Notes under the pieces: generated by a model | What the model was told of the DNA's origin: nothing | The model's input: the letters and a program-made list of their open reading frames with translations, nothing else | The model's database searches: none | In this document: positions 8,197 to 63,228 of the stretch, in pieces | How the letters are laid out: each line of letters starts with the position of its first letter | How positions within the stretch are numbered: position 1 is the stretch's first letter | NCBI RefSeq assembly: GCF_030814815.1 | Contig: NZ_JAUSVR010000001.1 | Location: 248,001 to 312,000 of the forward strand | Reading direction: 5' to 3' | Origin: Ancylobacter amanitiformis | Lineage (GTDB): Bacteria; Pseudomonadota; Alphaproteobacteria; Rhizobiales; Xanthobacteraceae | Length of the DNA: 64,000 nt | Position numbers and translations under genes: made by a program

Positions 8197-8207
8197 GATG
8201 GCTCTCC

Positions 8208-9026
8208 TCAGGCGTGCGAGCGTGCGAAGGCGAGGCACGCTGTGAGAATGTCGGTCAGCGCCGCGCGGGCGGGCGCGGCATAGGCGGGGTCGAAGGCGCT
8301 CGGCCAGTTGGTTGAGTCCACCGGCCCCAGCGTCTCGGGCATGTAGGTGCGGCAGGCGAGTTCCATCTGCACGGCATGCACGCCGCGTTCCGGCGCGCCA
8401 TAGTGACGGGTGATGTAGCCGCCCTTGAACCGTCCATTGGACACGCGGGAGAAATCCGTCGCGTCGCAGATCGCCTCGATCCTGGCGAGCAGGTCCGGCG
8501 CGCAGCTCATCCCGGAATTGGTGCCGAGATTGAGGTTGGGCAGCGTGCCCTCGAACAGGCGGGGAATGACCGAGCGGATCGAATGGCAGTCATACAGAAC
8601 GACCGTGCCATGCGTGGCGCGGGCATGCGCGATCTCGGCCGCGAGCGCGGCGTGGTAGGGGTCGAAATAGGCCGCGCGGCGGGTGGCGACATCCGGCCCC
8701 TTGCCGTCGCGGTAGAGCGGTTCGCCGTCGAAGGTTGTGGTCGGGCACAGCTCGGTCGTCGCCTGCCCGGGATAGAGCGAGACCCCGGAAGGATCGCGGT
8801 TCACGTCGATCGCGGTGCGGGAGATGGACGTGCGCACCACGCTCGCACCGAGCCCCGCGGCGAAGTCGTACAGCGTCTCGATCCACCAGTCGCAATCCTT
8901 GCGGGCGAGCCAGGGCGAGACGAGATCATCGGCGATGTCCTCGGGAATGTCGGTGCCGGTATGCGGCAGCGAAAGCACCAGCGGCGCGCTGCCGCGAAGG
9001 ACGGTGAGGAAGGACGGGTGGGTCAT
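8208..9026 (-). CDS. hutG: N-formylglutamate deformylase HutG
   Basis: Zinc-dependent amidohydrolase releasing formate and glutamate from N-formyl-L-glutamate, the last step of the five-step pathway. The product is 272 aa. The motifs [13 protein letters not shown] near the N-terminus, [29 protein letters not shown] and GGYITRHYG are characteristic of the N-formylglutamate amidohydrolase family rather than of the arginase-like HutG of other bacteria. Pairing it with HutF at 12054 makes the route formiminoglutamate to formylglutamate to glutamate. The ATG at 9026 is preferred over upstream extensions, which run into a palindromic repeat. Confidence 0.93.
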
Positions 9027-9055
9027 GCGCGAGGCTCCCGGCAGGAGCGGCAAAG

Positions 9056-9166
9056 CCCCCTCTCCCCATCGGGGAGAGGGGTGGGGTGAGAGACCTTCGA
9101 CGCTCCGCGAGCGTGCGCCCCCTCTCCCGGCGCTTCGCGCCGACATCTCCCCCACGGGGAGAGGTT
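9056..9166. repeat. Interspersed palindromic intergenic repeat (CCTCTCCCC type)
   Basis: The 178-bp gap between hutG and hutH holds two hairpin-forming blocks: CCCTCTCCCCATCGGGGAGA near 9058-9077, and a second one with CCCCCTCTCCCGGCG at about 9118 ending in CCCACGGGGAGAGG at 9164. Related elements occur in many copies between genes in Hyphomicrobiales. Here one sits inside the hut operon, where it may form strong RNA structure between hutH and hutG. Confidence 0.7.
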
Positions 9167-9204
9167 AAGATGGCCCGTGCGAGGAAGCATCGCGTACATC
9201 TCCC

Positions 9205-10755
9205 TCACTCCCCCGAAATGGCCGGCAGCAGGTCTGCCGCCAACTCTGCGATGACGCCGGAACGCACCAGCGCGTTCGCCGCTTCCATGTCGGGCGAGAA
9301 ATGCCGGTCCTCGTCGAGATGGGGCACCTCGGCCCGCAGCCTCTCCCGCACCGTCTCCAGCACCGGCGAGGAGGCGAGCGGGGCGTGAAAATCGCAGCCC
9401 TGCGCGCTCGCCAGCAATTCGATGCCGATCACGGCAATGGCGTTCTCGACCATCGCCAGCAGCCGGCGTGCGCCATGGGCGGCCATGGACACATGGTCTT
9501 CCTGGTTGGCCGAGGTGGGGATGGAATCGACGCTGGCGGGATAGGCCCGCTGCTTGTTCTCGGAGACCAGCGCCGCCGCCGTCACCTGCGGGATCATGAA
9601 GCCGGAATTCAGCCCCGGCCGCGGGGTGAGGAAGGCCGGCATGCCCGACAGCGCGGGATCCACCAGCATGGCGATGCGCCGTTCCGCCAGCGAACCGATC
9701 TCGCACACCGCGAGGGCGATCATGTCGGCGGCGAAGGCCACCGGCTCGGCATGGAAGTTACCGCCCGAGAGCGCCTCATGCGCGCCCGCCCCGCTCTCGT
9801 CCACGAAGATCAGCGGATTGTCGGAGACACCGTTCGCCTCGGTGGCGAGCGTGGTCGCGGCCTGGCGCAGCACGTCGAGCGCGGCGCCCATCACCTGCGG
9901 CTGGCAGCGCAGGCAATAGGGGTCCTGCACCCGCTCGTCGCCCACCAGATGCGAGGCGCGGATGGCCGAACCGTTCATCAGGGCACGCAGCGCCTCCGCC
10001 GTCTCGATCTGGCCGCGATGCTTGCGCAAGCGGTGGATGCGCGGGTCGAACGGCGCGTCCGAGCCGCGCGCGGCATCGGTCGACAGCGCGCCGGTCACCA
10101 GCGCGGAGCGGAAGAGGTTCTCCGCCTCGAACAGGCCGGCCAGCGCGTTGGCGGTGGAGAACTGCGTGCCGTTGAGCAGCGCCAGCCCCTCCTTGGGGCC
10201 GAGCGTGACCGGGGCGAGCCCGGCGTCACGCAGCGCCGCCTCGGCGGGAAGGCGGGCGCCGTCGACGAAGATCTCGCCCACGCCGATCATGGTCGCGGTC
10301 ATGTGCGCGAGCGGGGCGAGGTCGCCCGAGGCGCCGACCGAGCCCTGGCAGGGCACCACCGGGGTGAGACCCCGGGCGAGCATGGCTTCCAGCAGCGCCA
10401 GCGTCGTGGGCTGGATGCCCGAGGCGCCCTGCGCGAGGCTGGCGAGCTTGAGCGCCATCATCAGCCGCGCCACCGGCACCGGCATGGGTTCGCCCACGCC
10501 CGCCGCATGCGACAGCACGATGTTGCGCTGGAGGGTGGCGAGGTCGGCGTCGCCAATGCGCACCGTGGCCAGCTTGCCGAAGCCGGTATTGATGCCGTAG
10601 ACGGGCTCGCCCTTGGCGAGGATGGCCGCCACCGCCCGGGCCGAGCGCTCCACGCCCGGCAGGCAGGCGGGATCGAGACTGGCGCGGGCGCCCTTGTAGA
10701 TCGCCCGCCACTGGCGGAGCGAGACATGGCCGGGATTCAGGACGATGTCGGTCAT
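9205..10755 (-). CDS. hutH: Histidine ammonia-lyase
   Basis: First enzyme of histidine degradation, eliminating ammonia from L-histidine to give urocanate. The product is 516 aa, normal for the family. The Ala-Ser-Gly triad that cyclises into the MIO electrophile is present in [15 protein letters not shown]. Other family segments include [11 protein letters not shown] near the N-terminus and [14 protein letters not shown] further on. The start overlaps the hutI stop by 4 bp (ATGA), so translation is coupled to hutI. Confidence 0.97.
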
Positions 10756-11954
10756 TTGCCTCTCCAGACGCGGGCGTGAAGCGGGTTGAATCCCATGCGG
10801 TAGACCAGTTCGGCCGGGCGCTCGATGTCCCAGACCGCGAGGTCGCAGCTCTTGCCGGCCTCCAGCGTGCCGGTCTCGCCGAGCCGGCCCAGCGCCCGCG
10901 CGGCCTCGCGCGTCACACCGGCAATGCACTCGTCCACCGTCAGGCGAAACAGGGTCGCGCCCATGTTCATGGTCAGCAGCAGCGAGGTCAGCGGCGAGGT
11001 GCCGGGATTGCAGTCGGTGGCCAGCGCGAGGTGGGTGCCGTGCCGGCGGAACAGGTCGACGGGCGGAACCTTGGTCTCGCGAATGAAATAGAACGCGCCC
11101 GGCAGCAGCACGGCCACCGTGCCGGCACCGGCCATGGCGGCGGCGCCTTCCTCGTCCGTGTGCTCCACATGATCGGCCGAGAGCGCGCCGAACTGCGCCG
11201 CCAGCTTTGCCCCGTGCAGGTTCGACAACTGGTCGGCATGCAGTTTCACCGGCAGCCCGAGCGCCTTGGCGGCGGTGAACACGCGCGCCACCTGCTCGGG
11301 CGAGAAGGCCAGCCCCTCGCAGAAGGCGTCCACCGCGTCGGCCAGCCCGGCTTGCGCGATCTCCGGCAGCAGGGCGATGACGTCGTCGATATAGCCGTCC
11401 TTGTCGCCCTTCGCCTCCGGCGGCAGGGCATGGGCGCCGAGATAGGTGGTCGTGACCGAGACCGGCCGCGCCGCGCCCAGCGCCCGCGCCGCCCGCAGGC
11501 TGGCGAGTTCGGCCGCGCGGGACAGGCCATAGCCCGATTTCACCTCAAGCGTGGTGACACCCTCGGCGATCAGCGCATCGAGCCGGGGCAGCGCGAGGGC
11601 GACCAGCTGCTCTTCGCTCGCCGCGCGCGTCGCCGCCATGGTGGAGACAATGCCCCCGCCGGCCCGGGCGATCTCCTCATAGGAGGCACCGGCAAGCCGC
11701 ATCTCGAATTCATGCGCCCGGTTGCCGCCGAAGATAAGATGGGTATGGCAGTCGATCAGCCCGGGCGTGATCCAGCGGCCCTCGACATCCACCACCTCGT
11801 CCGGCGCGAAATCCGGCGCGTCCGACGCGGGGCCGACATGAACGATGCGCCCGTCGCGGCTGGCGATGACGCCATCCTCGATGACGCCGAGCCCCTCGCG
11901 CGACGGCGCCAGCGTAGCCAGCCGCGCCCCCCGCCATACACGATCGCAGCGCAT
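10752..11954 (-). CDS. hutI: Imidazolonepropionase
   Basis: Third enzyme of histidine degradation, a metal-dependent amidohydrolase that opens the imidazolone ring to N-formimino-L-glutamate. The 400-aa protein has the [19 protein letters not shown] metal-binding and substrate segment, the EVKSGYGL motif, [19 protein letters not shown] and [11 protein letters not shown], all in the usual order. The ATG at 11954 gives the usual [16 protein letters not shown]-terminus; another ATG at 11987 would add 11 residues and begin almost inside the operator. It is first in the leftward operon, with the HutC operator just upstream. Confidence 0.96.
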
Positions 11955-11989
11955 GGACCCATCCTTCGGCGTGTGGTGACAAGACATCG

Positions 11990-12006
11990 ATTAATGTCTA
12001 TACATA
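11990..12006. promoter_or_regulatory. HutC operator in the hutI/hutF divergent region
   Basis: An exact 17-base copy of the sequence upstream of hutC (ATTAATGTCTATACATA, core GTCTATAC). It is placed 36 bp before the chosen hutI start and 48 bp before hutF, so one bound repressor could block both divergent promoters. The repetition is seen directly; regulation is inferred from the known HutC-subfamily consensus GTnTAnAC. Confidence 0.8.
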
Positions 12007-12053
12007 ATCGCATGATGACGAACTTGTCCATAGCCCTCGGGAGCGATGCCGCC

Positions 12054-13409
12054 ATGACCCGCCTCTGGTTCGAAAACGCTTTTCTGGCAGATGGTTGGGC
12101 AAGGAACGTGAGGCTCGACATCGCGCAGGGTCGCCTCATCGGCATCACCCGCGATGTCGCCCCCGATGGCGCGGACGAGCGCCATGCCCTCGCCCTGCCC
12201 GGCCTGCCGAACCTGCACAGCCACGCCTTCCAGCGCTCTTTCGCCGGCGGGGCGGAAGTGCGCGGGCCGAGCGGCGACAGTTTCTGGACCTGGCGCGAAG
12301 CGATGTACCGGGCGGTGGACCGGCTCGATCCCGACGAGGTCGAGGCCATTGCCGCGCAGGCCTATGTCGAGATGCTGGAAGCCGGCTTCACCCGCGTCGG
12401 CGAGTTCCACTATCTCCACCATGACCGCGACGGCGGAGCCTATGCCGATTGCGGCGAACTGAGCCAGCGAATCGCGGCCGCCGCGAACGAGACCGGCATC
12501 GCCCTCACCCTGCTGCCGGTGTTCTACGCCCATGGCGGCTTCGGCGGGCAGGCGCCCACGCACGGCCAGCGCCGCTTCATCAACGATATCGAGAGCTTCG
12601 GCCGGCTGATGGAATCGGCCCGCCGCGCCGTCTCCGCCCTGCCCGACGCGGTGCTCGGCATCGCCCCGCACAGCCTGCGCGCCGCAACGGTGGCGGAGAT
12701 CGCCGCCATCCTGCCGCTCGCGCAGGGCGGGCCGGTGCATATCCATGTCGCCGAGCAGACCCGCGAGGTGGAGGATTGCCTCGCCTGGGCCGGCAGGCGG
12801 CCGGTCGAGTACCTGCTCGACAATGCCGACGTCGATGCGCGCTGGTGCCTGATCCACGCCACCCACATGAGCGAGGCGGAGACGCTCGCCATGGCGCGAA
12901 GCGGCGCGGTGGCGGGGCTCTGCCCGATCACCGAGGCCAACCTGGGCGATGGCATTTTCCCGGCCCCCGCTTTCATCGCGGCCGGCGGCGCCTATGGCGT
13001 GGGCTCGGATTCCAATGTGCAGATCGACGCCGCCGGTGAATTGCGCCTGCTGGAATATTCGCAGCGCCTTGCCCTGCGCGCGCGCAACGTGCTGGCCATG
13101 AGCGAGGGCCGCTCGACGGGCGAGGCGCTGTTCGCCGCCGCGCTCTCGGGTGGCGCGCAGGCGCTGCAGGGAGCGAGCGGCCTCGCCATCGGCGCACCGG
13201 CCGATATTGTCAGCCTCGACGCCGCCCATCCGTCCCTCACTGGGCGCACCGGCGCGGCGCGGCTCGACGGCTGGATCTTCGCCGTGGCGGGAAATGCCGT
13301 TGACTGCGTCTGGCGCCGTGGTGAAAAGCTGGTGGCGGGCGGCAGGCATCGGGCGCGCGACAGCGTCAGCGCGCGTTTCCGCGCTGCCCTCGACAGGATC
13401 GCCGGGTGA
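12054..13409 (+). CDS. hutF: Formimidoylglutamate deiminase
   Basis: Amidohydrolase-superfamily enzyme that deiminates N-formimino-L-glutamate to N-formylglutamate and ammonia, the branch that needs HutG deformylase. The product is 451 aa. The TIM-barrel metal ligands appear in NLHSHAFQRSF, HIHVAEQTREVEDC, LIHATHMS and GVGSDSNVQID. The segment GEFHYLHHD is typical of HutF. The ATG at 12054 fits the homologous N-terminus MTRLWFENAFL, and the long upstream open frame is a shadow of hutI. It is divergent from hutI across the HutC operator and is followed closely by a RidA-family gene. Confidence 0.95.
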   Translation: MTRLWFENAFLADGWARNVRLDIAQGRLIGITRDVAPDGADERHALALPGLPNLHSHAFQRSFAGGAEVRGPSGDSFWTWREAMYRAVDRLDPDEVEAIAAQAYVEMLEAGFTRVGEFHYLHHDRDGGAYADCGELSQRIAAAANETGIALTLLPVFYAHGGFGGQAPTHGQRRFINDIESFGRLMESARRAVSALPDAVLGIAPHSLRAATVAEIAAILPLAQGGPVHIHVAEQTREVEDCLAWAGRRPVEYLLDNADVDARWCLIHATHMSEAETLAMARSGAVAGLCPITEANLGDGIFPAPAFIAAGGAYGVGSDSNVQIDAAGELRLLEYSQRLALRARNVLAMSEGRSTGEALFAAALSGGAQALQGASGLAIGAPADIVSLDAAHPSLTGRTGAARLDGWIFAVAGNAVDCVWRRGEKLVAGGRHRARDSVSARFRAALDRIAG

Positions 13410-51141: not shown

Positions 51142-52575
51142 ATGAGCATCACGGACAAGCCCCCCGTTCACGTCATCGGCGGCGGCCTCGCCGGCTCCGA
51201 GGCGGCATGGCAGATCGCCCGCCGGGGCATCCGCGTCATCCTGCACGAGATGCGGCCCACCCGCGCCACCGATGCGCACAGGACGCAGGCACTGGCTGAA
51301 TTGGTCTGCTCCAATTCGTTCCGCTCGGACGACGCCACCTCCAACGCGGTCGGCGTGCTGCATGCCGAGATGCGCCGGCTCGGCTCGCTCATCATGGCCT
51401 GCGCCGATCGTCACCAGCTGCCGGCCGGCGGTGCGCTGGCGGTGGACCGCGATGCCTTCGCCGCCGCCGTCACCGCTGCCCTGGAGCAGCACCCCGGCAT
51501 CGCCATCGAACGCGGCGAAATCGACGGCCTGCCGCCGGACGCATGGGATTCGGTCATCATCGCCACCGGCCCGCTCACCTCCCCGGCCCTCGCCGAGGCC
51601 ATCCGCGCCCGCACGGACGAGACGGCGCTGGCCTTCTTCGACGCCATCGCGCCCATCGTTCATTTCGATTCGATCGACATGAACATGTGCTGGTTCCAGT
51701 CGCGCTACGACAAGGCGGGCCCGGGCGGCACCGGCGCGGACTATATCAACTGCCCGATGGACAAGGCGCAGTACGATGCCTTCGTCGCCGCCCTCATCGC
51801 CAGCGACACCGTGCCGTTCCGTGATTTCGAAGCGGCGACGCCCTATTTCGACGGCTGCCTGCCCATCGAGGTCATGGCCGCGCGCGGGCCGGAGACGCTG
51901 CGCCACGGCCCGATGAAGCCAATGGGCCTGACCAATGCGCATAACCCGACGGTGAAGCCCCATGCCGTGGTGCAGCTGCGGCAGGACAATGCGCTCGGCA
52001 CGCTGTTCAACATGGTCGGCTTCCAGACCAAGACCCGCCATTCCGAGCAGGTGCGCATCCTGCGCATGATCCCCGGGCTGGAAAACGCCGAATTCGCCCG
52101 GCTGGGCGGCCTCCACCGCAACACCTATCTCAACTCGCCCAAGCTGCTAGACGGCACGCTGCGGCTCAAGGTCGAGCCGCGGCTGCGCTTCGCCGGCCAG
52201 ATCACCGGCTGTGAGGGCTATGTGGAAAGCGCGGCGATGGGCCTCATGGCCGGCCTGTTCGCCAGCGCCGAGCGCCTTGGAGACGAGCCCTCCGTGCCGC
52301 CGCCGACCACCGCCTTCGGCGCGCTGATCAACCACATCACCGGCGGGCATATCGAGACCGTCGAGGCCGGGCCCCGCTCCTTCCAGCCGATGAACATCAA
52401 TTTCGGCCTGTTCCCCCCGCTGGAGGCCACCCCCACCCGCGATGCGGAGGGCAACCGGTTGCGCGGCACGCAGAAAACCGTGGCCAAGAAGCAGGTCATG
52501 GCGGCGCGGGCGCTGCGCGACCTCGATCAATGGGCGACCCTCCACGCCGATCCTTCGTGCGAGGCTGCCGCGTGA
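51142..52575 (+). CDS. trmFO: tRNA (uracil-54-C5)-methyltransferase, folate-dependent
   Basis: FAD- and methylene-THF-dependent enzyme making ribothymidine at tRNA position 54; 477 aa. The FAD-binding site is [20 protein letters not shown], followed by [30 protein letters not shown] and a C-terminal [17 protein letters not shown]. The start at [13 protein letters not shown] is standard. The stop overlaps the GTG of the next gene by 4 bp. Confidence 0.96.
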
Positions 52576-53648
52576 CCCAGGCGCTTCCCGACGCCGCGCG
52601 CGGCACATTCGAACTCGACACCGTGCTCAAGCGCGACATCTTCTCGACCATCGAGCGCGGCCTGTGGCGCGATGAGGCCGGCAACGCCTTTCCCGCCGTG
52701 CGCCGGCGCTACACCGATGTGAAATGGTGGATAAAGCCGCTGGCGCGGCATTTCGCCCGCCGCGAGGCACGCGCCTTGCGCCGGGCGGAGGGCAGCGGCC
52801 ACACGGTGCCGGTCTATGCGCTGGAAGAAGGCGCGCTGGTGCGTGGCTTCGTCGACGGCATTCCGCTGCAGATCGCCCGCCCCTATGGCGATGCCGCGTT
52901 TTTCCGCTCGGCGCGCGAGGGCCTGCGTGAGGTGCACCGCCGGCGCATCGCCCATAACGACCTCGCCAAGCCGCAGAACTGGCTCTATGCCGCCGACGGG
53001 CGGGCGGTGCTGATGGATTTCCAGCTCGCCTTCTGCTTCGAGCGCCGCTCGAAATTCTTCCGCGTCGCCGCCTATGAGGATATCCGCCACCTGCTCAAGC
53101 AGAAGCGCAGCTTCTGCCCGGAGGCGCTGACACCCATGGAAAAGCGCATCCTCGCCCGCAAGAGCCTGTTCACCCGCATCTGGATGGCGACCGGCAAGCA
53201 GGTGTATAACTTCGTCACCCGCCGCCTGCTCAACTACCACGATACCGAAGGGCGCGGCCCGCGCGCCATGGAGCAGGGCCCGCGCATCGCCGAGGCGCTC
53301 GGCGCGGCGCCGGGGGTGCGGGGCGTGCATATCGCCGATTTCCCCACCGCCGGCCACAGCTTCGGCCTCTACGCCTTCGTCGAGGCGACCGGCACCAGCG
53401 AGGAAACCCTGCGCGCGCATCTGGCCACCACCGTGCCCGATATCCTGCCGCCCGAGCACCTGCAGATCGTGCCGGCCCTGCCCCGCGATGAGGCCGGCGA
53501 GGTGCGTGACGACCTGCTGCGCCTCGTCGCGCTGAACCAGATCGACCAGCTTGAGCAATTGCCCCGCAGCGCCAGCGAGCAGGCGGCGATCGACGCCATC
53601 ATCCGCGACCGCCGCAACCTGAGCGACCGGGTGCGGCGCGGCATCTGA
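52572..53648 (+). CDS. Kinase-like protein fused to an AMP-binding-enzyme C-terminal domain
   Basis: 358-aa protein with two parts. Residues about 20-200 form a protein-kinase-like fold with an unusual catalytic loop [10 protein letters not shown] (Asp130, where HRD would be expected) and a metal loop MDFQLA (Asp149; DFQ in place of DFG), closer to RIO/lipopolysaccharide kinases than to classical Ser/Thr kinases. Residues about 238-328 resemble the C-terminal lid domain of acyl-CoA synthetases ([20 protein letters not shown], then [20 protein letters not shown] and [12 protein letters not shown]). The GTG at 52572 overlaps the trmFO stop by 4 bp with GAGG eight bases upstream. Function unknown. 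Confidence 0.72.
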
Positions 53649-53744
53649 TGCATCCCGCGCCGCCTTGACACGCCCGACCCGCCCGAAATGATCGGCGGCG
53701 GGGGAATCGGGGCATCATCCGGCCGAAGCGTGCCTGGGAGACTT

Positions 53745-54755
53745 ATGCGTTACCTCATCACCGGCACGGCAGGCTTCATCGGCTACCATCTGGCGCGGCG
53801 GCTGCTCGAAAACGGGCACGAGGTGGTCGGCTTCGACGGCATGACCGCCTATTACAATCTCAAGCTGAAAGAAGCCCGGCACGCCGCGCTGGCGCAGTTT
53901 CCCGCCTTCACGCCGCATATCGGCATGCTGGAGGACCGCGCCGCGCTGGCCCGCGCCACCACCGCCCGGCCCGACATCATCGTCCACCTCGCGGCCCAGG
54001 CGGGGGTGCGCTACAGCCTGGAAAATCCCAAGGCCTATCTCGATTCCAACCTTGTCGGCTCGTGGAACGTGCTGGAGCTGGCGCGGGAACTGGGCGTCCA
54101 GCATCTGCTGCTCGCCTCCACCTCCTCCATCTACGGCGCCAACCCGACCATCCCCTTCCATGAAACGGACCGGGCCGACGAGCCGCTGACCTTCTATGCC
54201 GCCAGCAAGAAGGGCATGGAGGCAATGGGCCATTCCTACGCCCATCTCTACCGGCTGCCGACGACGGCTTTCCGCTTCTTCACCGTGTATGGCCCCTGGG
54301 GTCGGCCGGACATGGCGCTGTTCAAGTTCGTCGCCGCCATGCTCGAGGACCGCGAGATCGAGATCTATGGCGAAGGGCGGATGAGCCGCGACTTCACCTA
54401 TATTGACGACCTGATCGAAGCCATCATCCGCCTTGCCGCGCTGCCGCCCGACGAGACCAACCGGGTCGAAGCGCCGGCCGGCATCGACACGCTGTCGCAT
54501 CAGGGGCCGTATCGCGTGGTCAATATTGGCGGTGGCCAGCCCGTGGGCCTGATCGATTTTGTCGAGACCATCGAGGCCGTGCTCGGCAAGCCGGCCCGGC
54601 GTCTCATGCTGCCCATGCAGAAGGGCGATGTGCCGCGCACCTTCGCCAGCCCGGACCTTCTCGTCGCGCTCACCGGCTATCGGCCGGCGACGCCGCTGGA
54701 TGAGGGCGTACACGCCTTTGTCGACTGGTATCTCGACGCGCGCGCCTATCTCTGA
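53745..54755 (+). CDS. NAD-dependent epimerase/dehydratase, UDP-glucuronate 4-epimerase-like
   Basis: Extended short-chain dehydrogenase of 336 aa. The NAD-binding motif is [20 protein letters not shown], the catalytic YxxxK is in [12 protein letters not shown], and [14 protein letters not shown] carries the Ser. The insertions [19 protein letters not shown] and [13 protein letters not shown] match bacterial UDP-glucuronate 4-epimerases, which supply UDP-galacturonate for surface polysaccharides. It follows the kinase-like gene by 96 bp on the same strand. Confidence 0.9.
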
Positions 54756-54758
54756 GCG

Positions 54759-55697
54759 CTACAGTTCACCCGTTTCGGCAGGCGCGGGCTCTCTTGCGTC
54801 GGTGCGCGCCTGCGCCAGCAGTTCGCGCAGGAAGGCATCGACCAGCGGTTGCTCGCCCGACAACCGCCGGGTGGCGGCAAAATGGGGCGATTCGAACCCA
54901 TAGCTCTCCGGCCGCAGCACGCGCATCTGCCCCCGCGCCGCCCAATCCTCGCCGATATGGCGCGGAAGGTAGCCGATGAAACGGCCGGACAGGATCATCA
55001 TCACCTGCGCTTCCATCTGCACGATGGCGGCGCTGGCGCGCGGGTGGTTCACCCGGTAGAGGTCGTCGAGGTGGCGGTAGCGTCGCACCGAGAACAGCGC
55101 TTCCTCGATTCGCGCGTGGCTGATCGCCTCCGCCGGCAGCGCGAATAGCGGATGGCCGCGCCCGCAATAGAGCGCCTGCGGCTCGCGGTGCAGCGGCACA
55201 TAGGTGATGCCCGGCACTTTCTGCGAGAACGGGCCGATCACCACGTCGCGCACGCCGTCCATCAGCGCCCGTTCCAGCACCAGCGGCGTGCCGAGTTCGA
55301 GGTCGACGAACACTTCCGAGGCATAGGCCATGTAGCGCGCCAGCGCGGTCTGCAGGCCGAGCCGCGGGTTCGTCACCACGCCATCGACAATGCCGACCCG
55401 GAGCCGCCCCACGAGGCGCTGCTGGTCGCGCCCGATGCGGCCGTGGAACGCGTCGATGTCCTCGAACAGCTGGAGCGCGGCGGCAAGAATCGCTTCGCCG
55501 AACGGCGTCAGGCGGAAGCCCGCCCGCCCGCGCTCGCATAATTGCCCGCCCAGCTTGCGCTCCAGCGCCGCGAGATGTGTGGAAAGCGTGGACTGGGAAA
55601 GATTGAGCGCGATCTGCGCATCCTGGAATCCGCCCTCCTGCGCCAGCACGACGAAGACGCGCAGCAGGCGCAGATCGATATTATCGAGCCGTCGCAT
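54759..55697 (-). CDS. LysR-family transcriptional regulator
   Basis: 312 aa. The N-terminal winged helix is classical (LRLLRVFVVLAQEGGFQDAQ, then NLSQSTLSTHLAALERKLG), followed by a LysR effector-binding domain (LRVGIVDGVVTNPRL; DVVIGPFS). AAAGGAG lies 9-10 bases before the ATG at 55697; an ATG at 55721 is less likely. It is divergent from the SDR-SDR-creatininase-ureohydrolase genes and is their probable activator. Confidence 0.9.
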   Translation of the reverse strand: MRRLDNIDLRLLRVFVVLAQEGGFQDAQIALNLSQSTLSTHLAALERKLGGQLCERGRAGFRLTPFGEAILAAALQLFEDIDAFHGRIGRDQQRLVGRLRVGIVDGVVTNPRLGLQTALARYMAYASEVFVDLELGTPLVLERALMDGVRDVVIGPFSQKVPGITYVPLHREPQALYCGRGHPLFALPAEAISHARIEEALFSVRRYRHLDDLYRVNHPRASAAIVQMEAQVMMILSGRFIGYLPRHIGEDWAARGQMRVLRPESYGFESPHFAATRRLSGEQPLVDAFLRELLAQARTDAREPAPAETGEL

Positions 55698-55729
55698 GGG
55701 GTTCGGCTCCTTTCTACTCACATCGATTT

Positions 55730-55770
55730 ATCTAAATGTAAGCTTCCACTAATTCCGATTTTTTCGGAAG
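55730..55770. promoter_or_regulatory. Candidate LysR binding region
   Basis: In the 162-bp divergent gap two inverted elements are visible: ACAT-N12-ATGT (about 55721-55740) and a clean palindrome TTCCGA-TTTTT-TCGGAA at 55753-55769, both AT-rich in a GC-rich background. Such dyads with T-N11-A character are typical for LysR regulators. Binding is inferred. Confidence 0.45.
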
Positions 55771-55859
55771 TGAATTTGCGAGACCATGGCCTTGTCCTCG
55801 CACAGGAGCGCCCGCGTGCCCCTCCGTCATCCTGTCCGCACCCGGCGCGGGAGCGCCGC

Positions 55860-56618
55860 ATGAGCCTCGATGGGCTTTCCGGGCGCACGGTGCTCGTCAC
55901 CGGATCGAGCCGGGGAATCGGCCTCGGCATCGCCCGCGCCTTCGCCACCGCCGGCGCGGACCTGCACATGCTGGCCGATGATGCCGCCATCTTCGAGGTG
56001 GCCGGGCGGCTCGGCGCGCGCGGCCACTGCGCCGACATCACCTCCAGCGAAGCCGTGGGCGAGGTCGCCGCCGCGCTCCCCCATCTCCACGTGCTGGTGA
56101 ACAATGCCGGGCTCGAACGGGTGACGCCGCTGGACGATGCGAGCGAGGCCAATGAGGCGACGTTCCGCCGCGTGCTTGATATCAACGTGGTCGGCACATT
56201 TCTCGTCACCCGCGCCCTGCTGCCTCGGATGGGCCATGGCGGGCGCATCATCAACACCGCCTCGGTGTGGTCGCGCGGGGCGGAAGCGCTGTTCGGCGCC
56301 TATGTCGCGTCCAAGCACGCGACCATCGGGCTGACAAAGACCTGGGCGAAGGAACTCGGCCCGCGCGGCATCACGGTGAACGCGGTGTGCCCGGGCTGGG
56401 TGCGCACGGAAGCCTCGCTGCGCTCGCTCCATGCCATGGCGGCGCGCACCGGCATGGAGCCGGAGGTTCTGCTGGAGGAGATCGTCGCCGCGCAGATCCT
56501 GCCCGGCTTCATGGAACCGGAAGACGTGGCCGGCACCTATCTGTTCCTGGCGTCCGACCTTGCCTCCAACATCACCGGCCAGAGCGTCGGTGTCGATCGC
56601 GGAGAATTCACATGGTAA
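55860..56618 (+). CDS. Short-chain dehydrogenase/reductase (first of two)
   Basis: Classical SDR of 252 aa. Cofactor motif TGSSRGIG at residues 14-21, NNAG at 81-84, catalytic Ser135, Tyr148 and Lys152 (AYVASKHATIGLTKTWA), and the PGWVRTE segment. The residues after the second strand (LADDAAIF) do not show a clear basic NADP site, so NAD is somewhat favoured. Start at the ATG spanning 55860-55862. It is the first gene of the operon divergent from the LysR regulator and overlaps the second SDR by 7 bp. Confidence 0.9.
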   Translation: MSLDGLSGRTVLVTGSSRGIGLGIARAFATAGADLHMLADDAAIFEVAGRLGARGHCADITSSEAVGEVAAALPHLHVLVNNAGLERVTPLDDASEANEATFRRVLDINVVGTFLVTRALLPRMGHGGRIINTASVWSRGAEALFGAYVASKHATIGLTKTWAKELGPRGITVNAVCPGWVRTEASLRSLHAMAARTGMEPEVLLEEIVAAQILPGFMEPEDVAGTYLFLASDLASNITGQSVGVDRGEFTW

Positions 56619-57364
56619 CGCCTCACAGGGAAGTTCCTCACCGGGAGCCGCCTCACAAGGATCTGCGGGTCGTCGTCACGGGTGCCGGGAGCGGCATCGG
56701 CCGGGCCACGGCGGATGCCCTGTTCGAGGCTGGAGCCAAGGTCATCGGCTTCGACCTGCGCCCGCCGGACCGCGCCAACTGGGCGACCATCATCACCAAC
56801 GTGGCGGAGGAGGCCTCCGTCGTCGCCGGCATGGAGGCGGCCGTCGCCGAGCTGGGCGGGTTGGACGCCATCGTCAACTGCGCCGGGCTATTGATCGAAA
56901 TGCCGCTCTCGGAATTCGATGTCGAGGCCTATGAGCGCATGGCGGCGGTGAATGTGCGCGGCCCCATCCTGATGGCGCGTGAGGCGTTGCGCCATTTCAA
57001 CGGGCGCGGCGAGACGCGCGGGCGCATCGTGAACATCGCCTCCGAGCTGGCCTATCTCGGCCGCGCCGGCGCCTCCGGCTATTGCGCGACCAAGGGCGCG
57101 ATCGTCTCGCTGACCCGCGCCTTCGCGCGCGAACTGGGTCCGCACATCCTGGTCAACGCCATCGCCCCCGGCCCGGTGGATACGCCGCTGCTCGGCTTTG
57201 GTGCGATGACCCCGGAGGCGCAGAAGCTGGAGACCGCCAACCCGCTCGGCCGGGTCGGCCGGCCGGAGGAGGTGGCGCAGGCGGTGCTGTTCCTGCTCAG
57301 CCGCGCAACCGGCTTCATTACCGGCCAGTGCATCAGCGTCGACGGCGGCGCGGCGATGCACTGA
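56612..57364 (+). CDS. Short-chain dehydrogenase/reductase (second of two)
   Basis: Classical SDR of 250 aa with a 16-residue His- and Pro-rich N-terminal tail. Cofactor motif TGAGSGIG at 23-30, Asp at the end of the second strand (GFDLR), which favours NAD, and catalytic Ser144, Tyr157 and Lys161 (SGYCATKGAIVSL). It is translationally coupled to the first SDR (7-bp overlap, GGAGA upstream) and followed by the creatininase-family gene after 26 bp. Substrate unknown; a hydroxyl on a polyol, cyclitol or sugar acid is plausible. Confidence 0.9.
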   Translation: MVTPHREVPHREPPHKDLRVVVTGAGSGIGRATADALFEAGAKVIGFDLRPPDRANWATIITNVAEEASVVAGMEAAVAELGGLDAIVNCAGLLIEMPLSEFDVEAYERMAAVNVRGPILMAREALRHFNGRGETRGRIVNIASELAYLGRAGASGYCATKGAIVSLTRAFARELGPHILVNAIAPGPVDTPLLGFGAMTPEAQKLETANPLGRVGRPEEVAQAVLFLLSRATGFITGQCISVDGGAAMH

Positions 57365-57390
57365 ACCCACGGACATCAGAGGGAAAGACC

Positions 57391-58167
57391 ATGGTCGACA
57401 GCCTGCGCCTGGACGAACTGAGCTGGCCGGAATTCGCGCGCAAGGTGGCGGCCGGCGCGCCCGTGCTGCTGCCGCTCGGCTCCACCGAGCAGCACGGCCC
57501 CCACCTGCCGCTCAATGTCGACGTCGTGCTGCCGACCGGCGTGTGCGAGCGCGTCGCCCGCGAGATCGGCGGCATCGTCGCGCCCACGCTCAATTACGGC
57601 TGCAAGTCGATGCCGCGCTCGGGCGGCGGCGAGGTGTTCCCCGGCACGCTGAGCCTCGACGCCCACACGTTCGCGCTGGTGCTGCGCGACGTGATCCGCA
57701 ATCTGGGCCGGCAGGGCGTGCGCCGGCTGGTCATCGTCAACGGCCATTACGAGAATTGCTGGCCCTCGGTCGAGGGGCTGGACCTCGCCCTGCGCGAACT
57801 GCGCCGCGACGGCATCACCGACATGCAGGTGATGCGGCTGGAATACTGGGACTTCGCCACCCGCGCCACGCTCGACCAACTGTTCCCGGACGGCTTCCCC
57901 GGCATCGATCTCGAACATGCCAGCCTCTTGGAAACTTCGCTCATGCTGCTACTGCGGCCCGAGCTCGTGGAGATGGACAAGGTGCCGACCGACGGGCCGG
58001 CCACGTTCCCACCCTATGACCGGTTTCCCGTGCCCGACGATTTCGGCCTGCCGCCCTCCGGCGTGCTGGCGGTGGCGGTCGGCTCCACCTCGGAGAAGGG
58101 CGAATTGCTGATGGCGGATTACATCACCCGCATATCCGCCGCCATCGTCAAGGAATTCGGGCTGTGA
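57391..58167 (+). CDS. Creatininase family amidohydrolase
   Basis: Metal-dependent ring-opening amidohydrolase family, 258 aa. The dinuclear metal ligands are all present with the spacing of Pseudomonas creatininase: Glu33, His35 and Asp44 in GSTEQHGPHLPLNVD, and His119 and Glu121 in VNGHYEN. The family includes creatinine amidohydrolase, the mycofactocin protein MftE and the 3-dehydro-scyllo-inosose hydrolase IolN. Its place between two dehydrogenases and two ureohydrolases suggests it opens a ring in a guanidino- or cyclitol-derived compound; this is inference. Confidence 0.9.
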   Translation: MVDSLRLDELSWPEFARKVAAGAPVLLPLGSTEQHGPHLPLNVDVVLPTGVCERVAREIGGIVAPTLNYGCKSMPRSGGGEVFPGTLSLDAHTFALVLRDVIRNLGRQGVRRLVIVNGHYENCWPSVEGLDLALRELRRDGITDMQVMRLEYWDFATRATLDQLFPDGFPGIDLEHASLLETSLMLLLRPELVEMDKVPTDGPATFPPYDRFPVPDDFGLPPSGVLAVAVGSTSEKGELLMADYITRISAAIVKEFGL

Positions 58168-58340
58168 TCCGGTTTCCCGGACAAGCGGCGCGAAGCGCGG
58201 CGCCGATCCGGGATCCAGGAGACAATCCGCAAGCGTCCAAATTGTCTTTCGCCGCCTGCGGCGGAGTCCTGCGCTGGATCCCGGCTCGGCGCTCCGGCTT
58301 CGCCTCCGCTGGGCCGGGAAACGAGGACGACAGGGCCGTG
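58168..58340. repeat. Interspersed palindromic intergenic repeat (GGATCCAG type)
   Basis: Imperfect inverted blocks between the creatininase and first ureohydrolase genes: GGTTTCCCGGAC at 58171 and CCGGGAAACGAGGAC near 58315, with CCGGGATCCAGG (58208) and CTGGATCCCGG (58273) as an inner pair. This is the kind of long imperfect palindrome dispersed between genes in Hyphomicrobiales. It separates parts of one operon. Confidence 0.7.
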
Positions 58341-58356
58341 CCCCAATGAGGTTTCC

Positions 58357-59313
58357 ATGACGAAAAAATTCGAGCCGCTCGATTCCGGCACCATCCCGCG
58401 TTTTGCCGGCCTTCCCACCTTCATGCGGCTGCCGGTGGCCGAGCCGTCCGAAGTCGACATCGCCATACTCGGCGTGCCCTTCGACCTCGGCACCACAAAC
58501 CGCGCCGGCACCCGCCACGGACCGCGCGAACTGCGCAACCAGTCCAGCCTGATGCGCCGCGTGCACCATGTCACCGGCCTCTCGCCCTATGACCGCGCGC
58601 GGGTGGCCGATTGCGGCGATGTCATCATCGACCCGTTCGATCTGATGCGCTCGCTCGATCTCATCAGCGCCCATTATGCCGGGGTGCGCGCGGCCGGGGC
58701 GCGGCCGCTGACGGCGGGTGGCGACCATCTCATCAGCCTGCCGATCCTGCGCGGGCTGGTGGAAGACGGCCCTGTCGGCCTCATTCAGTTCGACGCGCAT
58801 TCAGATACTTACGACAGTTTCTTCAACGGAAGTCGTTACACCCACGGCACGCCGTTCCGCCGCGCCATCGAGGAAGGGCTGATCGACCCCACGCGCTTCG
58901 TCCAGATCGGCCTGCGCGGCGCCATCTCCGATGCCGGCAATTACGATTACGCCCGCGATGTCGGCGTGCGCATCATCTTCATCGAGGAACTGGTCGCGCG
59001 CGGCGTCGAGGACGTGATGGCGGAAGCGCGGGCCATCGTCGGCGACGCGCCCACCTATGTCACCTTCGACATTGACGGCATCGACCCCTCGCAGGCCCCC
59101 GGCACCGGCACGCCGGAGATCGGCGGCTTCTCCACCCGCGAGGCGCAGGCCATGGTGCGCCTGCTCGACGGGCTCGACATCATCGGCGCCGACCTCGTCG
59201 AAGTCGCCCCGCCCTTCGATCCATCCGGCCTCACCGCGCTGACCGGGGCCACCATCCTGTTCGAACTGCTCTGCGTGCTCGCCGGCACCGTCGAGCGGAA
59301 GGGAGCGCGCTGA
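58357..59313 (+). CDS. Ureohydrolase family protein, agmatinase-like (first of two)
   Basis: Binuclear Mn hydrolase of the arginase/agmatinase family, 318 aa. Metal motifs: GGDH at residues 121-124, DAHSD at 146-150, and DIDGIDPS at 238-245. The family removes urea from guanidino compounds (agmatine, guanidinobutyrate, guanidinopropionate, guanidine). The N-terminal RFAGLPTFMRLPVAEP resembles guanidinobutyrase/guanidinopropionase-like members, but specificity cannot be read. It overlaps the second copy by 1 nt and follows the creatininase gene across a repeat. Confidence 0.9.
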   Translation: MTKKFEPLDSGTIPRFAGLPTFMRLPVAEPSEVDIAILGVPFDLGTTNRAGTRHGPRELRNQSSLMRRVHHVTGLSPYDRARVADCGDVIIDPFDLMRSLDLISAHYAGVRAAGARPLTAGGDHLISLPILRGLVEDGPVGLIQFDAHSDTYDSFFNGSRYTHGTPFRRAIEEGLIDPTRFVQIGLRGAISDAGNYDYARDVGVRIIFIEELVARGVEDVMAEARAIVGDAPTYVTFDIDGIDPSQAPGTGTPEIGGFSTREAQAMVRLLDGLDIIGADLVEVAPPFDPSGLTALTGATILFELLCVLAGTVERKGAR

Positions 59314-60269
59314 TGTCGCATGGTTATGAAGCGGGCCGGCTCGACCTGCCCTTCGTCGGCATCTGCACTTTCGGCAAATACCCGCTGCAACTGGACTGGA
59401 ATGCCATTGACGCCGACGTCGCGGTGCTCGGCGCACCGTTCGACATGGGCACGCAGTGGCGCTCGGGCGCCCGCTCGGGTCCGCGCGCCATTCGCGAGGC
59501 TTCGACACTGTTTTCGTTCGGCCATTCCGGCGCCTATGACCACGAAGACGATATCACTTACCTTCCCGCCGGATCGACGCGCATCGTCGATATCGGCGAT
59601 GCCGACATGGTCCACACGGACACGCTCACCAGCCACGCCAACATCGAATATGCCGTGCGCAAGGTCCTCGCTGCCGGCGCGCTCCCGGTGGTGCTGGGCG
59701 GCGATCATTCGATCAATATCCCCTGCATCGAGGCGTTCTCGGAACAGGAGCCGATCCACATCGTGCAGTTCGACGCGCATCTCGACTTTGTCGACGAGCG
59801 GCACGGCGTCACCCGCGGCCATGGCAACCCGCTGCGCCGCGCCGCCGAGAAGCCCTATGTCACCGGCCTCACCCAACTCGGCATCCGCAACGTCTCCTCC
59901 ACCGCGCGCGAGGGCTATGAGGCGGCGCGGGCCATGGGTTCGGACATTCTGAGCGTGCGCCAGATCCGCAAGCTGGGCACCGAAGCGGTGCTGGCGCGCA
60001 TCCCCGAGGGCAAGCGCTATTACGTGACGCTCGACATTGACGGTTTCGATCCCTCCATCGCCCCCGGCACCGGCACGCCGAGCCATGGCGGCTTCACCTA
60101 TTACGAGGTGCTGGAACTGCTCGACGGGCTGGCCCGACGCGGCAGCGTGGTGGGGATCGACCTGGTGGAAGTGGCACGTGAATACGACCCTGCCGGCACG
60201 ACCGCGATCCTCGCCGCGCAGATTCTGCTCAACTTCATCGGTCGCATCCTGCACCATCGGCACCCGTGA
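59313..60269 (+). CDS. Ureohydrolase family protein, agmatinase-like (second of two)
   Basis: Also 318 aa, but clearly different from its neighbour. Metal motifs: GGDH at 129-132, DAHLDFVD from 154, DIDGFDPS from 241. The N-terminus (PFVGICTFGKYPLQLDW) and TQWRSGARSGPRAIREAST are typical of agmatinase/guanidinobutyrase relatives. The ATG shares one base with the TGA of the first copy. Two tandem, diverged copies could act on two guanidino positions of one substrate, or form a hetero-oligomer. Confidence 0.9.
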   Translation: MSHGYEAGRLDLPFVGICTFGKYPLQLDWNAIDADVAVLGAPFDMGTQWRSGARSGPRAIREASTLFSFGHSGAYDHEDDITYLPAGSTRIVDIGDADMVHTDTLTSHANIEYAVRKVLAAGALPVVLGGDHSINIPCIEAFSEQEPIHIVQFDAHLDFVDERHGVTRGHGNPLRRAAEKPYVTGLTQLGIRNVSSTAREGYEAARAMGSDILSVRQIRKLGTEAVLARIPEGKRYYVTLDIDGFDPSIAPGTGTPSHGGFTYYEVLELLDGLARRGSVVGIDLVEVAREYDPAGTTAILAAQILLNFIGRILHHRHP

Positions 60270-60614
60270 TGGAGGCGACGAACCCACACGAACAGAGGGC
60301 GCGCAGACAAGGGCGATGCGCGAAACAGGCACACTGGACAATCCAGGCTGCATCCGCGAGGAGGCCGTGAGGAGGGAGCCGGGCATTTGCGAAGACCACA
60401 TCGGCGACAAAGTCAAGGCTTCGCCCTACGCTGCCGGAAGCAGCAACAGAAAGGTATCCGGAAACGGACTGTTTCCGTTTTATTCGCCAAAACTTTAGAG
60501 CTGAACGAAAATCGCCTTCTTCTGGAGGCATGTGTAGCATAATAAACTATGAATCGAGTCCGGACGTTCGCGGCCGGGCTCGCGCGTTTGTTTGGGGATT
60601 AGGGGCATCTGCGC
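60270..60614. other. Intergenic region with a weak terminator-like hairpin
   Basis: 345 bp between the second ureohydrolase and the MarR-family gene. CGGAAAC-GGACT-GTTTCCG at 60459-60477 followed by TTTTATT on the plus strand could end the catabolic operon, although it is 190 bp from the stop. The MarR-family promoter should lie at 60490-60600. No gene seen. Confidence 0.5.
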
Positions 60615-61172
60615 ATGGCAAGCAAGCCGGCGACTGAAAATGACGGCGCCGAAAACGGCGAAGGACTGCAGTTACCATCCCTCGCTCCATCAACGAACGA
60701 GGCTAACGCGGAACAGGTCATCACTCATCTGGAGATCGCCCGGCTGATCGAGCGAGCGCATCGCCGCTTTCTCGACCTGCTGCGAATCGACCTTGCGCGG
60801 TTCGGAATCGACGACATCAGCCCGTCGCAGGTGATGCTGCTGTTCACCATCGGCAGCGACGAACTCTCCGTGCGCGACCTGCTGGAGCGCGGGCACTATC
60901 TCGGCTCCAATGCGTCGTACAATCTCAAGCAGCTTGTGGAGGCGGACTATGTGCACCGCTCGCCCTCGCTGCGCGATCGGCGCTCCGCCCGCCTGCGGCT
61001 GACGCCCAAGGCCGTGCAACTATGCGACGCCATCCGCTCGGTGCATGAGCAGGGCACGCGCACCGGCTCGCGTGACGAACCCGACGCTCAGGACATGTCG
61101 GTGACCTACAGCGTGTTGCGCCGGCTTGAAATCCTCTGGACCGGCATGCTGCGCTACGGCGAGAATGGCTAG
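60615..61172 (+). CDS. MarR-family transcriptional regulator (LdtR-like)
   Basis: 185-aa winged-helix regulator. A polar N-terminal tail of about 35 residues precedes the MarR fold: RRFLDLLRIDLARFGIDDIS, then PSQVMLLFTIGSDELSVRDL and the recognition region GHYLGSNASYNLKQLVEADY with wing SLRDRRSARLRL. The YLGSNxSYN stretch resembles LdtR, a conserved Hyphomicrobiales regulator that in Liberibacter controls an L,D-transpeptidase and stress tolerance. This identification is from memory of the motif; no transpeptidase gene is nearby. Confidence 0.78.
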   Translation: MASKPATENDGAENGEGLQLPSLAPSTNEANAEQVITHLEIARLIERAHRRFLDLLRIDLARFGIDDISPSQVMLLFTIGSDELSVRDLLERGHYLGSNASYNLKQLVEADYVHRSPSLRDRRSARLRLTPKAVQLCDAIRSVHEQGTRTGSRDEPDAQDMSVTYSVLRRLEILWTGMLRYGENG

Positions 61173-61479
61173 TTGACGGAACGTACCGCCCGCGTGCCGG
61201 GCGGTACGGAAGGTGCCCAACCCATCCAGAGACCCCCAGCATCCAGAGACCGCGGCATCCAGAGACCGCCGAGCGAGGACAGCGCGACTTCCGGCCGGAG
61301 GTCGCGCTGTTTGCCTATGAGGCGTTTCGTCCGGGCGTATTCGTCTCCATTCTGGCCACCGCAGCCGGCCAGAATACCCGGCGCGGCCTGAAGGCGGGCA
61401 GCCGTCGCCCCCGGTGCCGGCGAGCGGAGCACCGCCCCGCTTTTTCAACACCCGCACGCCCAGCGCCCGATTCGGCCGA
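61173..61479. other. Intergenic region with short tandem repeats and a terminator hairpin
   Basis: 307 bp between convergent marR and pgm genes. CATCCAGAGACC occurs three times (61223, 61240, 61256). A 12-bp stem (AGCGCGACTTCC paired with GGAGGTCGCGCT, one G-T pair, GGCC loop) at 61281-61308 is followed by GTTTGCC and may terminate marR transcripts. No gene seen. Confidence 0.6.

Positions 61480-63228
<1,749 letters not shown>

What the first reader, a model, noticed from the sequence alone, without database searches (positions are those of the whole stretch)
54759..60269. Possible undescribed guanidino-compound catabolic operon: LysR, two SDRs, creatininase, two ureohydrolases
Seen: a LysR gene divergent from SDR-SDR-creatininase-ureohydrolase-ureohydrolase, with overlaps of 7 and 1 nt, all active-site residues intact. 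Known: ureohydrolases release urea from guanidino groups; creatininase-family enzymes open amide or lactone-like rings, and one member (IolN) acts on an oxidised cyclitol. Inference: a substrate with a ring, oxidisable hydroxyls and one or two guanidino groups. Streptidine-like diguanidino cyclitols fit the enzyme count; creatinine analogues or guanidino acids are simpler alternatives. I know of no described pathway with this exact set.
Basis: partly seen in the sequence, partly recalled or inferred. Interest (0 to 1): 0.72.

Follow-up and report, generated by a model that had tools for sequence, protein, structure and literature searches.

The report
Undescribed guanidino-compound breakdown operon
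A recurring set of bacterial genes appears to oxidise, ring-open and strip urea from an unidentified small guanidine compound, and its creatininase and agmatinase labels are probably misleading.

Summary
The six genes are real and intact at the stated places; only the LysR start looks misplaced. All six lie together in 23 of 80 loci fetched with UH2, so this is no local accident. Of 34 non-redundant loci seeded with SDR1, 29 have a ring-opening hydrolase within 8 kb: the creatininase (15) or an unrelated PuuE-like protein (14), never both. The guanidine enzyme varies too: UH1, UH2, both, or in one locus an arginine-deiminase-family protein. One guanidino group is enough; a diguanidino cyclitol is not needed.

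The creatininase passes the curated model and keeps its metal ligands, but Trp174 is replaced in 48 of 48 SDR-linked copies, while 11 of 13 unlinked ones keep it. Four of six M24 proteins were examined; none looks like creatinase. Creatinine itself is unlikely.

Best reading: the SDRs oxidise a small guanidino alcohol or cyclic carbinolamine to a creatinine-like ring, the creatininase-type enzyme opens it, ureohydrolases release urea. Against: four distant versions outside the class show no ureohydrolase. The substrate is unidentified; ten paper searches found no description.

The parts
54759..55697 (-). LysR-family regulator, divergent (called from GTG 55721; ATG 55697 is the likelier start)
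   Evidence: Pfam HTH_1 and LysR_substrate; below the cut-off of the 25 NCBIfam models shown; two relatives start at MRRLDN
55698..55859 (.). Divergent regulatory region with a LysR-box-like element (55720-55739) and a conserved TTCCAnTAA block after it
   Evidence: alignment of 14 intergenic regions, window plus 13 loci without an ABC importer in between: CATCGA in 14 of 14, the second half CGAT in 13 of 14 (degenerate in the window)
55860..56618 (+). SDR1, classical short-chain dehydrogenase
   Evidence: Pfam adh_short_C2; below every NCBIfam cut-off shown; best PDB D-3-hydroxybutyrate dehydrogenase, 140 bits
56612..57364 (+). SDR2, classical short-chain dehydrogenase, 7-nt overlap with SDR1
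57391..58167 (+). Creatininase-type ring-opening hydrolase; ligands kept, Trp174 replaced by Ile
   Evidence: TIGR04448 366.8 bits, cut-off 235; 1j2t 272 bits; residue counts
58168..58356 (.). Interspersed repeat between creatininase and UH1; not part of the module
   Evidence: 30 matches in the genome, mostly partial; gap only 19 nt in L001
58357..59313 (+). UH1, ureohydrolase of the guanidinopropionase (GpuA) side of the family
   Evidence: 3nip 407 bits, 3nio 318, E. coli SpeB 222; tree
59313..60269 (+). UH2, ureohydrolase of an uncharacterised, strongly conserved clade (named speB in many plasmid records)
   Evidence: best PDB Deinococcus agmatinase 197 bits; tree; 80 loci at 76-98% identity; speB names

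Best explanation
A catabolic operon, probably LysR-controlled, for a small guanidino compound other than creatinine. SDR1 and SDR2 oxidise an alcohol and/or the cyclic carbinolamine (hemiaminal) that a guanidino aldehyde forms, giving a cyclic acyl-guanidine or imide of creatinine type. The Trp174-less creatininase-type enzyme opens that ring to a guanidino acid. UH1 (guanidinopropionase side) and/or UH2 hydrolyse it to urea and an amino acid; urea goes to the genome's urease. This mirrors dehydrogenase-plus-lactonase steps in sugar oxidation. Shown: gene set, recurrence, interchangeable openers and guanidine enzymes, residue signature, urease in the genome. Inferred: direction, order of steps, ring chemistry, substrate class.
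For: Recurrence: 23 of 80 UH2-seeded loci hold all six genes. SDR1-seeded set: 29 of 34 have a ring-opener within 8 kb, creatininase 15, PuuE-like 14, both 0; probability of no overlap under independence 8e-6, ignoring kinship. L187 and L191 are the same LysR/ABC/SDR1/UH1/UH2/SDR2 operon with PuuE-like in place of the creatininase. The PuuE-like protein is nearest to 3rxz (222 bits) and a distant relative of PuuE allantoinase, a cyclic-ureide hydrolase (60 bits). A ureohydrolase is near SDR1 in 23 of 34; L192 has an ADI/DDAH-family protein instead. Residue 174 is not Trp in 48 of 48 SDR-linked creatininases (43 with SDR1 at 48% or more, 1 with SDR2 only, 4 with distant SDRs; at least two genes counted twice) but Trp in 11 of 13 unlinked ones. 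One genome of the window's genus (G459) holds both: Ile in the module copy, Trp in the unlinked paralog (L228, L232). A taurine-type binding protein gene is near SDR1 in 28 of 55 loci. Urease alpha is in the genome. N-(hydroxymethyl)guanidine is an unexpectedly stable hemiaminal (PMC12508155, passages incl. abstract).
Against: No activity is known for any gene in this context. SDR sequences do not reveal substrate. 5 of 34 SDR1 loci have no opener and 11 of 34 no UH. Four distant versions in another class (L229, L230, L231, L233; SDRs 37-46% identical, SDR1 not recognised in L231) pair a Phe174 creatininase with SDR-like genes; of these, a desaturase-type gene and a lactonase-type gene were identified in L229 and a biuret-hydrolase-like gene in L233, and no ureohydrolase motif set was found in any of the four. 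So the SDR-creatininase pair need not serve a guanidine there. Both UHs narrowly pass the agmatinase cut-off (186 and 178 against 174.3). The window operon has no transporter gene. UH2 lies without SDR1 in 51 of 80 loci, some short, so it has a wider role. GpuA Tyr157 is Phe here and varies among linked UH1s (30 Phe, 12 Tyr, 1 Leu). The unlinked control is small: one of the 13 (L216) is below the TIGR04448 cut-off, and two (L207, L208) come from one genus.
Confidence: 0.54

Rival explanations
1. Creatinine route without creatinase: creatininase opens creatinine to creatine and a ureohydrolase yields sarcosine and urea; the SDRs feed in an alcohol such as creatinol.
For: TIGR04448 equivalog cut-off passed; no creatinase recognised among the four of six M24 proteins examined; four loci (L012, L016, L020, L021) and L212 carry a Rieske oxygenase, GbcA-like where tested (L012, L212), fit for N-methyl groups
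Against: Trp174 replaced in 48 of 48 SDR-linked copies; no sarcosine-handling gene recognised among recurrent neighbours (by eye); two SDRs are not needed for creatinine
Confidence: 0.12
2. Two joined units: SDR1-SDR2-creatininase handle a ring without a guanidine (oxidised cyclitol, lactone or imide), while the ureohydrolases are separate nitrogen scavengers.
For: UH2 often stands without SDR1, for example with an amino-acid ABC importer; L087, L203, L204 have SDRs and creatininase with no UH within 8 kb; four distant versions show no ureohydrolase motif set, with a lactonase-type gene identified in L229 and a biuret-hydrolase-like gene in L233
Against: creatininase scores far above IolN (366.8 against 67.7 bits); UHs recur with SDR1 in 23 of 34 loci, and in L192 an ADI-family protein stands there instead
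Confidence: 0.16
3. UH1 and UH2 form one heteromeric enzyme like metformin or dimethylguanidine hydrolase.
For: adjacent ureohydrolase genes with 1-nt overlap; such heteromers exist (PMC11399263, passages)
Against: both keep the metal motifs, unlike the degenerate beta subunit reported there; UH1 or UH2 occurs without the other in 16 of 55 SDR1 loci; metformin hydrolase is a distant match
Confidence: 0.06
4. Streptidine-like diguanidino cyclitol pathway: each ureohydrolase removes one guanidino group.
For: enzyme count only
Against: 28 of 55 SDR1 loci lack the UH1-UH2 pair; UH1 sits with an enzyme of a short linear guanidino acid
Confidence: 0.03

Closest known systems
Creatininase (creatinine amidohydrolase, TIGR04448; PDB 1j2t)
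   Same: family, length, metal ligands, Trp154
   Different: Trp174 replaced in the SDR-linked copies examined; SDR partners; no creatinase recognised among the M24 proteins examined
3-Guanidinopropionase GpuA of Pseudomonas aeruginosa (PDB 3nip)
   Same: closest characterised relative of UH1; metal motifs
   Different: Tyr157 is Phe in the window; partnered with SDRs and a ring-opener
Agmatinase SpeB / Deinococcus agmatinase (PDB 7lol, 1wog)
   Same: UH2 and UH1 narrowly pass the agmatinase model; many plasmid records name UH2 speB
   Different: UH2 is a separate long-branched clade; UH1 is nearer GpuA
Allantoinase PuuE / PDB 3rxz deacetylase-fold protein
   Same: relative of a cyclic-amide hydrolase that replaces the creatininase in sister operons
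   Different: weak similarity to PuuE itself (60 bits against 222 to 3rxz); not in the window
Metformin and dimethylguanidine hydrolases (MefH, DmgH)
   Same: tandem ureohydrolase genes
   Different: distant sequences, no degenerate subunit; no nickel chaperone recognised by eye among the ORFs of 50-64 kb, not searched with a model
3-Dehydro-scyllo-inosose hydrolase IolN
   Same: creatininase superfamily
   Different: 67.7 bits against a cut-off of 245

Membership tests
Creatininase (TIGR04448) | score above curated cut-off | tested here: met
   366.8 bits, cut-off 235
Creatininase (TIGR04448) | metal and catalytic residues E34, H36, D45, H120, E122 and Trp154 (roles recalled) | tested here: met
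Creatininase (TIGR04448) | active-site Trp174 (role recalled) | tested here: not met
   Ile in the window; 0 of 48 SDR-linked copies have Trp, 11 of 13 unlinked do
Creatininase (TIGR04448) | turns over creatinine | not testable with these tools
   needs enzyme assay
3-Guanidinopropionase (GpuA) | groups with GpuA to the exclusion of GbuA and SpeB | tested here: inconclusive
   UH1 next to GpuA with support 84-90, not starred; bit scores 407, 318, 222
3-Guanidinopropionase (GpuA) | specificity residue Tyr157 (recalled) | tested here: not met
   Phe in the window
Agmatinase (TIGR01230) | score above curated cut-off 174.3 | tested here: met
   UH1 186, UH2 177.9; own-genome paralogs L109 and L110 pass too
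Agmatinase (TIGR01230) | groups with a characterised agmatinase | tested here: inconclusive
   UH1 not with E. coli SpeB; UH2 only with Deinococcus agmatinase over very long branches
Metformin hydrolase type heteromer | second subunit lacks metal ligands | tested here: not met
   GGDH, DAHxD and DxDxxDP in both UHs
IolN (3-dehydro-scyllo-inosose hydrolase) | score above curated cut-off 245 | tested here: not met
   67.7 bits
Guanidine-riboswitch-controlled operon | Rfam guanidine riboswitch upstream | tested here: not met
   no Rfam hit at gathering threshold in window 52000-62000

The most novel reading that the evidence does not exclude
A widespread, undescribed pathway for a guanidino alcohol or cyclic guanidine. 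A Trp174-less creatininase subfamily and an unrelated PuuE/CE4-fold hydrolase are interchangeable openers of the same creatinine-like ring, made by two SDRs from a carbinolamine. UH2, named speB agmatinase in many alphaproteobacterial records, would be a guanidino-acid hydrolase of new specificity. That would be new activities in several enzyme families and a new nitrogen source.
Probability: 0.48. Interest if true: 0.68.

Novelty: new variant of a known kind. Interest (0 to 1): 0.52.

Why it matters
Guanidine metabolism is being mapped now, and the natural guanidino compounds that bacteria eat are mostly unknown. This module gives a testable handle: interchangeable steps, a residue that flags creatininases unlikely to act on creatinine, and a large clade labelled agmatinase that may be misnamed. 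It would also warn against predicting creatinine or polyamine metabolism from these annotations.

Tried and rejected
Classical creatinine-creatine-creatinase route: rejected as best reading. Four of six M24 proteins of the genome were examined and none resembles creatinase closely (best 1chm, 79 bits for L119); L116 and L117 were not searched further.

GpuA Tyr157 as a module marker: tried, fails (30 Phe, 12 Tyr, 1 Leu among linked UH1s).

Downstream enzymes to name the product: ORF clustering within 9.5 kb of SDR1 showed, among clusters in three or more loci, no further enzyme that I recognised beyond SDRs, ABC parts, openers, UHs, regulators, DUF1989 and a few Rieske oxygenases and amidases; many other clusters look like shadow reading frames (read by eye). 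Leads left open: Rieske oxygenase (L012, L016, L020 = L181, L021, L212), NtaA-type monooxygenase (L087), aminotransferase V and HpcH aldolase (L083), type III glutamine-synthetase-like gene (L203, L205), ADP-ribosylglycohydrolase (L090), glyA (L081).

Methylglyoxal-arginine adducts, 5-hydroxycreatinine, dihydroisocytosine, guanidinoethanol: considered as substrates on chemistry alone (recalled); nothing in the data chooses among them, and a search for some such names listed no pathway. Guanidine riboswitch: none.

Full report
What is there. The genes stand as described: a LysR regulator divergent from SDR1, SDR2, a creatininase-family enzyme and two ureohydrolases. SDR1 and SDR2 overlap by 7 nt, UH1 and UH2 by 1 nt. 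In the closest relative, L001 (Ancylobacter tetraedralis, 95-98% identical proteins), the gap is 19 nt; in the related loci L002-L015 other than L009 and L012 it ranges from 19 to 205 nt. The LysR probably starts at 55697, because the called GTG start lies in an element conserved in the alignment of 14 intergenic regions (first half in 14, second half in 13, degenerate in the window).

Family placement. The creatininase passes TIGR04448 (366.8 bits, cut-off 235) and is far from IolN (67.7, cut-off 245). UH1 is closest to guanidinopropionase (407 bits), then guanidinobutyrase (318), then E. coli agmatinase (222). UH2's best solved relative is Deinococcus agmatinase at 197 bits. In a quick tree of 132 rows UH1 sits beside GpuA with moderate support (84-90); UH2 forms its own clade on very long branches. 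Both pass the agmatinase cut-off narrowly (186 and 178 against 174.3), a result against over-reading the split. The SDRs reach none of the curated cut-offs shown.

Recurrence. The one scan of genome contigs with UH2 kept the best 80 of 285 relatives. 23 of these 80 hold LysR, SDR1, SDR2, creatininase, UH1 and UH2: Ancylobacter and other Xanthobacteraceae, Chelatococcus, Methylopila, Hansschlegelia, a Rhizobiaceae strain, a Rhizobiales MAG and Bauldia. 29 of 80 have SDR1. In 10 of the 23 (L009, L012, L016, L018, L020-L023, L054, L057) a taurine-type ABC importer lies between LysR and SDR1, unlike the window, and four (L012, L016, L020, L021) carry a Rieske oxygenase after the creatininase. SDR1 is rare: 8 of 385 class genomes and 34 of 397 order genomes at E 1e-60, own genome included.

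Interchangeable parts. To avoid seeding on the ureohydrolase I took 40 loci found by SDR1: 6 plasmid records of the 16 (L081, L082, L083, L086, L087, L090; L082 was opened through its UH2 hit), 8 regions from the 7 other genomes, and 26 of the 34 genomes. The eight left out were the own genome, one of its genus and six of one genus already represented. Six with under 1.5 kb of flank were dropped (L100, L102, L103, L104, L202, L205); none of the remaining 34 was a near-copy of another at 95%. Within 8 kb, 15 have the creatininase, 14 a PuuE-like deacetylase-fold protein, none both, five neither; independence would give no overlap with probability 8e-6, without correction for kinship. 23 of 34 have a ureohydrolase and 26 of 34 an SDR2. 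L187 and L191 show the exchange inside one operon type: LysR, importer, SDR1, UH1, UH2, SDR2, PuuE-like. In L192 a DUF1989 protein and an arginine-deiminase/DDAH-family protein stand where the ureohydrolases would be; L203 and L204 have DUF1989 and no UH. Among 55 non-redundant SDR1 loci of all origins, 27 have UH1 and UH2, 10 UH1 only, 6 UH2 only, 1 another ureohydrolase, 11 none (counted from the rows). What is conserved is a logic: oxidise, open a ring and, in most versions, process a guanidine.

Why not creatinine. I recall that Trp174 of Pseudomonas creatininase closes over the substrate. In one search it is replaced in all 40 SDR1-linked copies (Ile 20, Thr 16, Met 2, Tyr 1, Phe 1) and the one SDR2-linked copy (Thr), while of ten unlinked creatininases eight have Trp and two Leu. 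A second sample (12 of 398 phylum genomes pass the cut-off; ten regions fetched) adds three SDR1-linked copies (Ile), four linked to distant SDRs (Phe) and three unlinked ones (all Trp). Total: 48 of 48 linked not Trp, 11 of 13 unlinked Trp. One unlinked protein (L216) is below the curated cut-off. Genome G459, of the window's genus, holds a module copy with Ile (L228) and an unlinked paralog with Trp (L232). The metal ligands stay, apart from one Asn at His120 among the 30 copies.

A version that does not fit. In L229, L230, L231 and L233, outside the class, creatininase lies with SDR-like genes (37-46% identity; in L231 only the SDR2-like one was found), a taurine-type binding protein and a protein of unknown family also seen in L012 and L016. 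In L229 I identified a fatty-acid-desaturase-type gene, an EamA transporter and a lactonase-type hydrolase, and in L233 a biuret-hydrolase-like protein. No ureohydrolase motif set was found in the four stretches. Either this is another pathway with the same ring chemistry, or the SDR-creatininase pair is not tied to guanidines.

Mechanism proposed. Guanidino aldehydes of two or three carbons should cyclise to carbinolamines, and PMC12508155 (passages, abstract among them) reports that N-(hydroxymethyl)guanidine is an unexpectedly stable hemiaminal. An SDR could oxidise such a ring to a creatinine-like acyl-guanidine; the creatininase-type or PuuE-like enzyme would open it to a guanidino acid; UH1, near an enzyme of 3-guanidinopropionate, or UH2 would free urea for the urease present on contig C20. 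Order, direction and substrate are inference. UH2 alone beside an amino-acid importer (L085) fits a guanidino acid taken up ready-made.

Literature. Ten searches of the open-access library listed no paper on this gene set; several returned capped lists. I saw passages of PMC11399263, PMC6742649, PMC9772407 and PMC12508155, and listings for the rest. Subscription papers and preprints were not covered. PMC9772407 (passages) reports that human 'agmatinase' is really a guanidino-acid hydrolase, a useful parallel for UH2.

Verdict.

Noticed in passing
window 58168-58356: Partly self-complementary interspersed repeat between creatininase and UH1; 30 matches in the genome on both strands, its own place included. 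The gap at this place varies among Ancylobacter-type loci (19-205 nt).
   Followed up: partly
L229, L230, L231, L233: Distant SDR-creatininase (Phe174) cluster outside Alphaproteobacteria, with no ureohydrolase motif set; desaturase-type, EamA and lactonase-type genes identified in L229, a biuret-hydrolase-like gene in L233.
   Followed up: partly
L012:10951-11718 and L229:5866-6678: A protein of about 255-270 residues without any Pfam or NCBIfam match recurs beside the module (35% identical between L012 and L229).
   Followed up: partly
L112 (G000 contig C14:40409-41230): The same genome encodes a close relative of the guanidine hydrolase structure 7esr (540 bits), so it may use free guanidine too.
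   Followed up: partly
L110 (G000 contig C21:40725-41546): A further ureohydrolase paralog in what looks by eye like an ABC-importer gene cluster; five arginase-family genes in all.
   Followed up: no
window 6529-13409: Looks like a histidine-utilisation (hut) region, judged by eye from translations; not searched.
   Followed up: no
L203:3996-5396 and L205:6437-7828: A type III glutamine-synthetase-like gene beside SDR1/SDR2/DUF1989, just under the curated cut-off (452 and 438 against 469.6 bits); could point to an amine product such as methylamine.
   Followed up: no
L090:8001-14250: SDR1 next to an ADP-ribosylglycohydrolase-family gene, DUF1989, a TRZ/ATZ-type amidohydrolase, PuuE-like and an amidase: perhaps a different pathway sharing SDR1 and the opener.
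   Followed up: partly
L212:8091-10900: Minimal cluster Rieske oxygenase, creatininase (Thr174), SDR2 with no SDR1 or UH found in the stretch.
   Followed up: partly
L121 (G000 contig C4): Ectoine-hydrolase-like M24 gene, 385 bits against a cut-off of 613.
   Followed up: no
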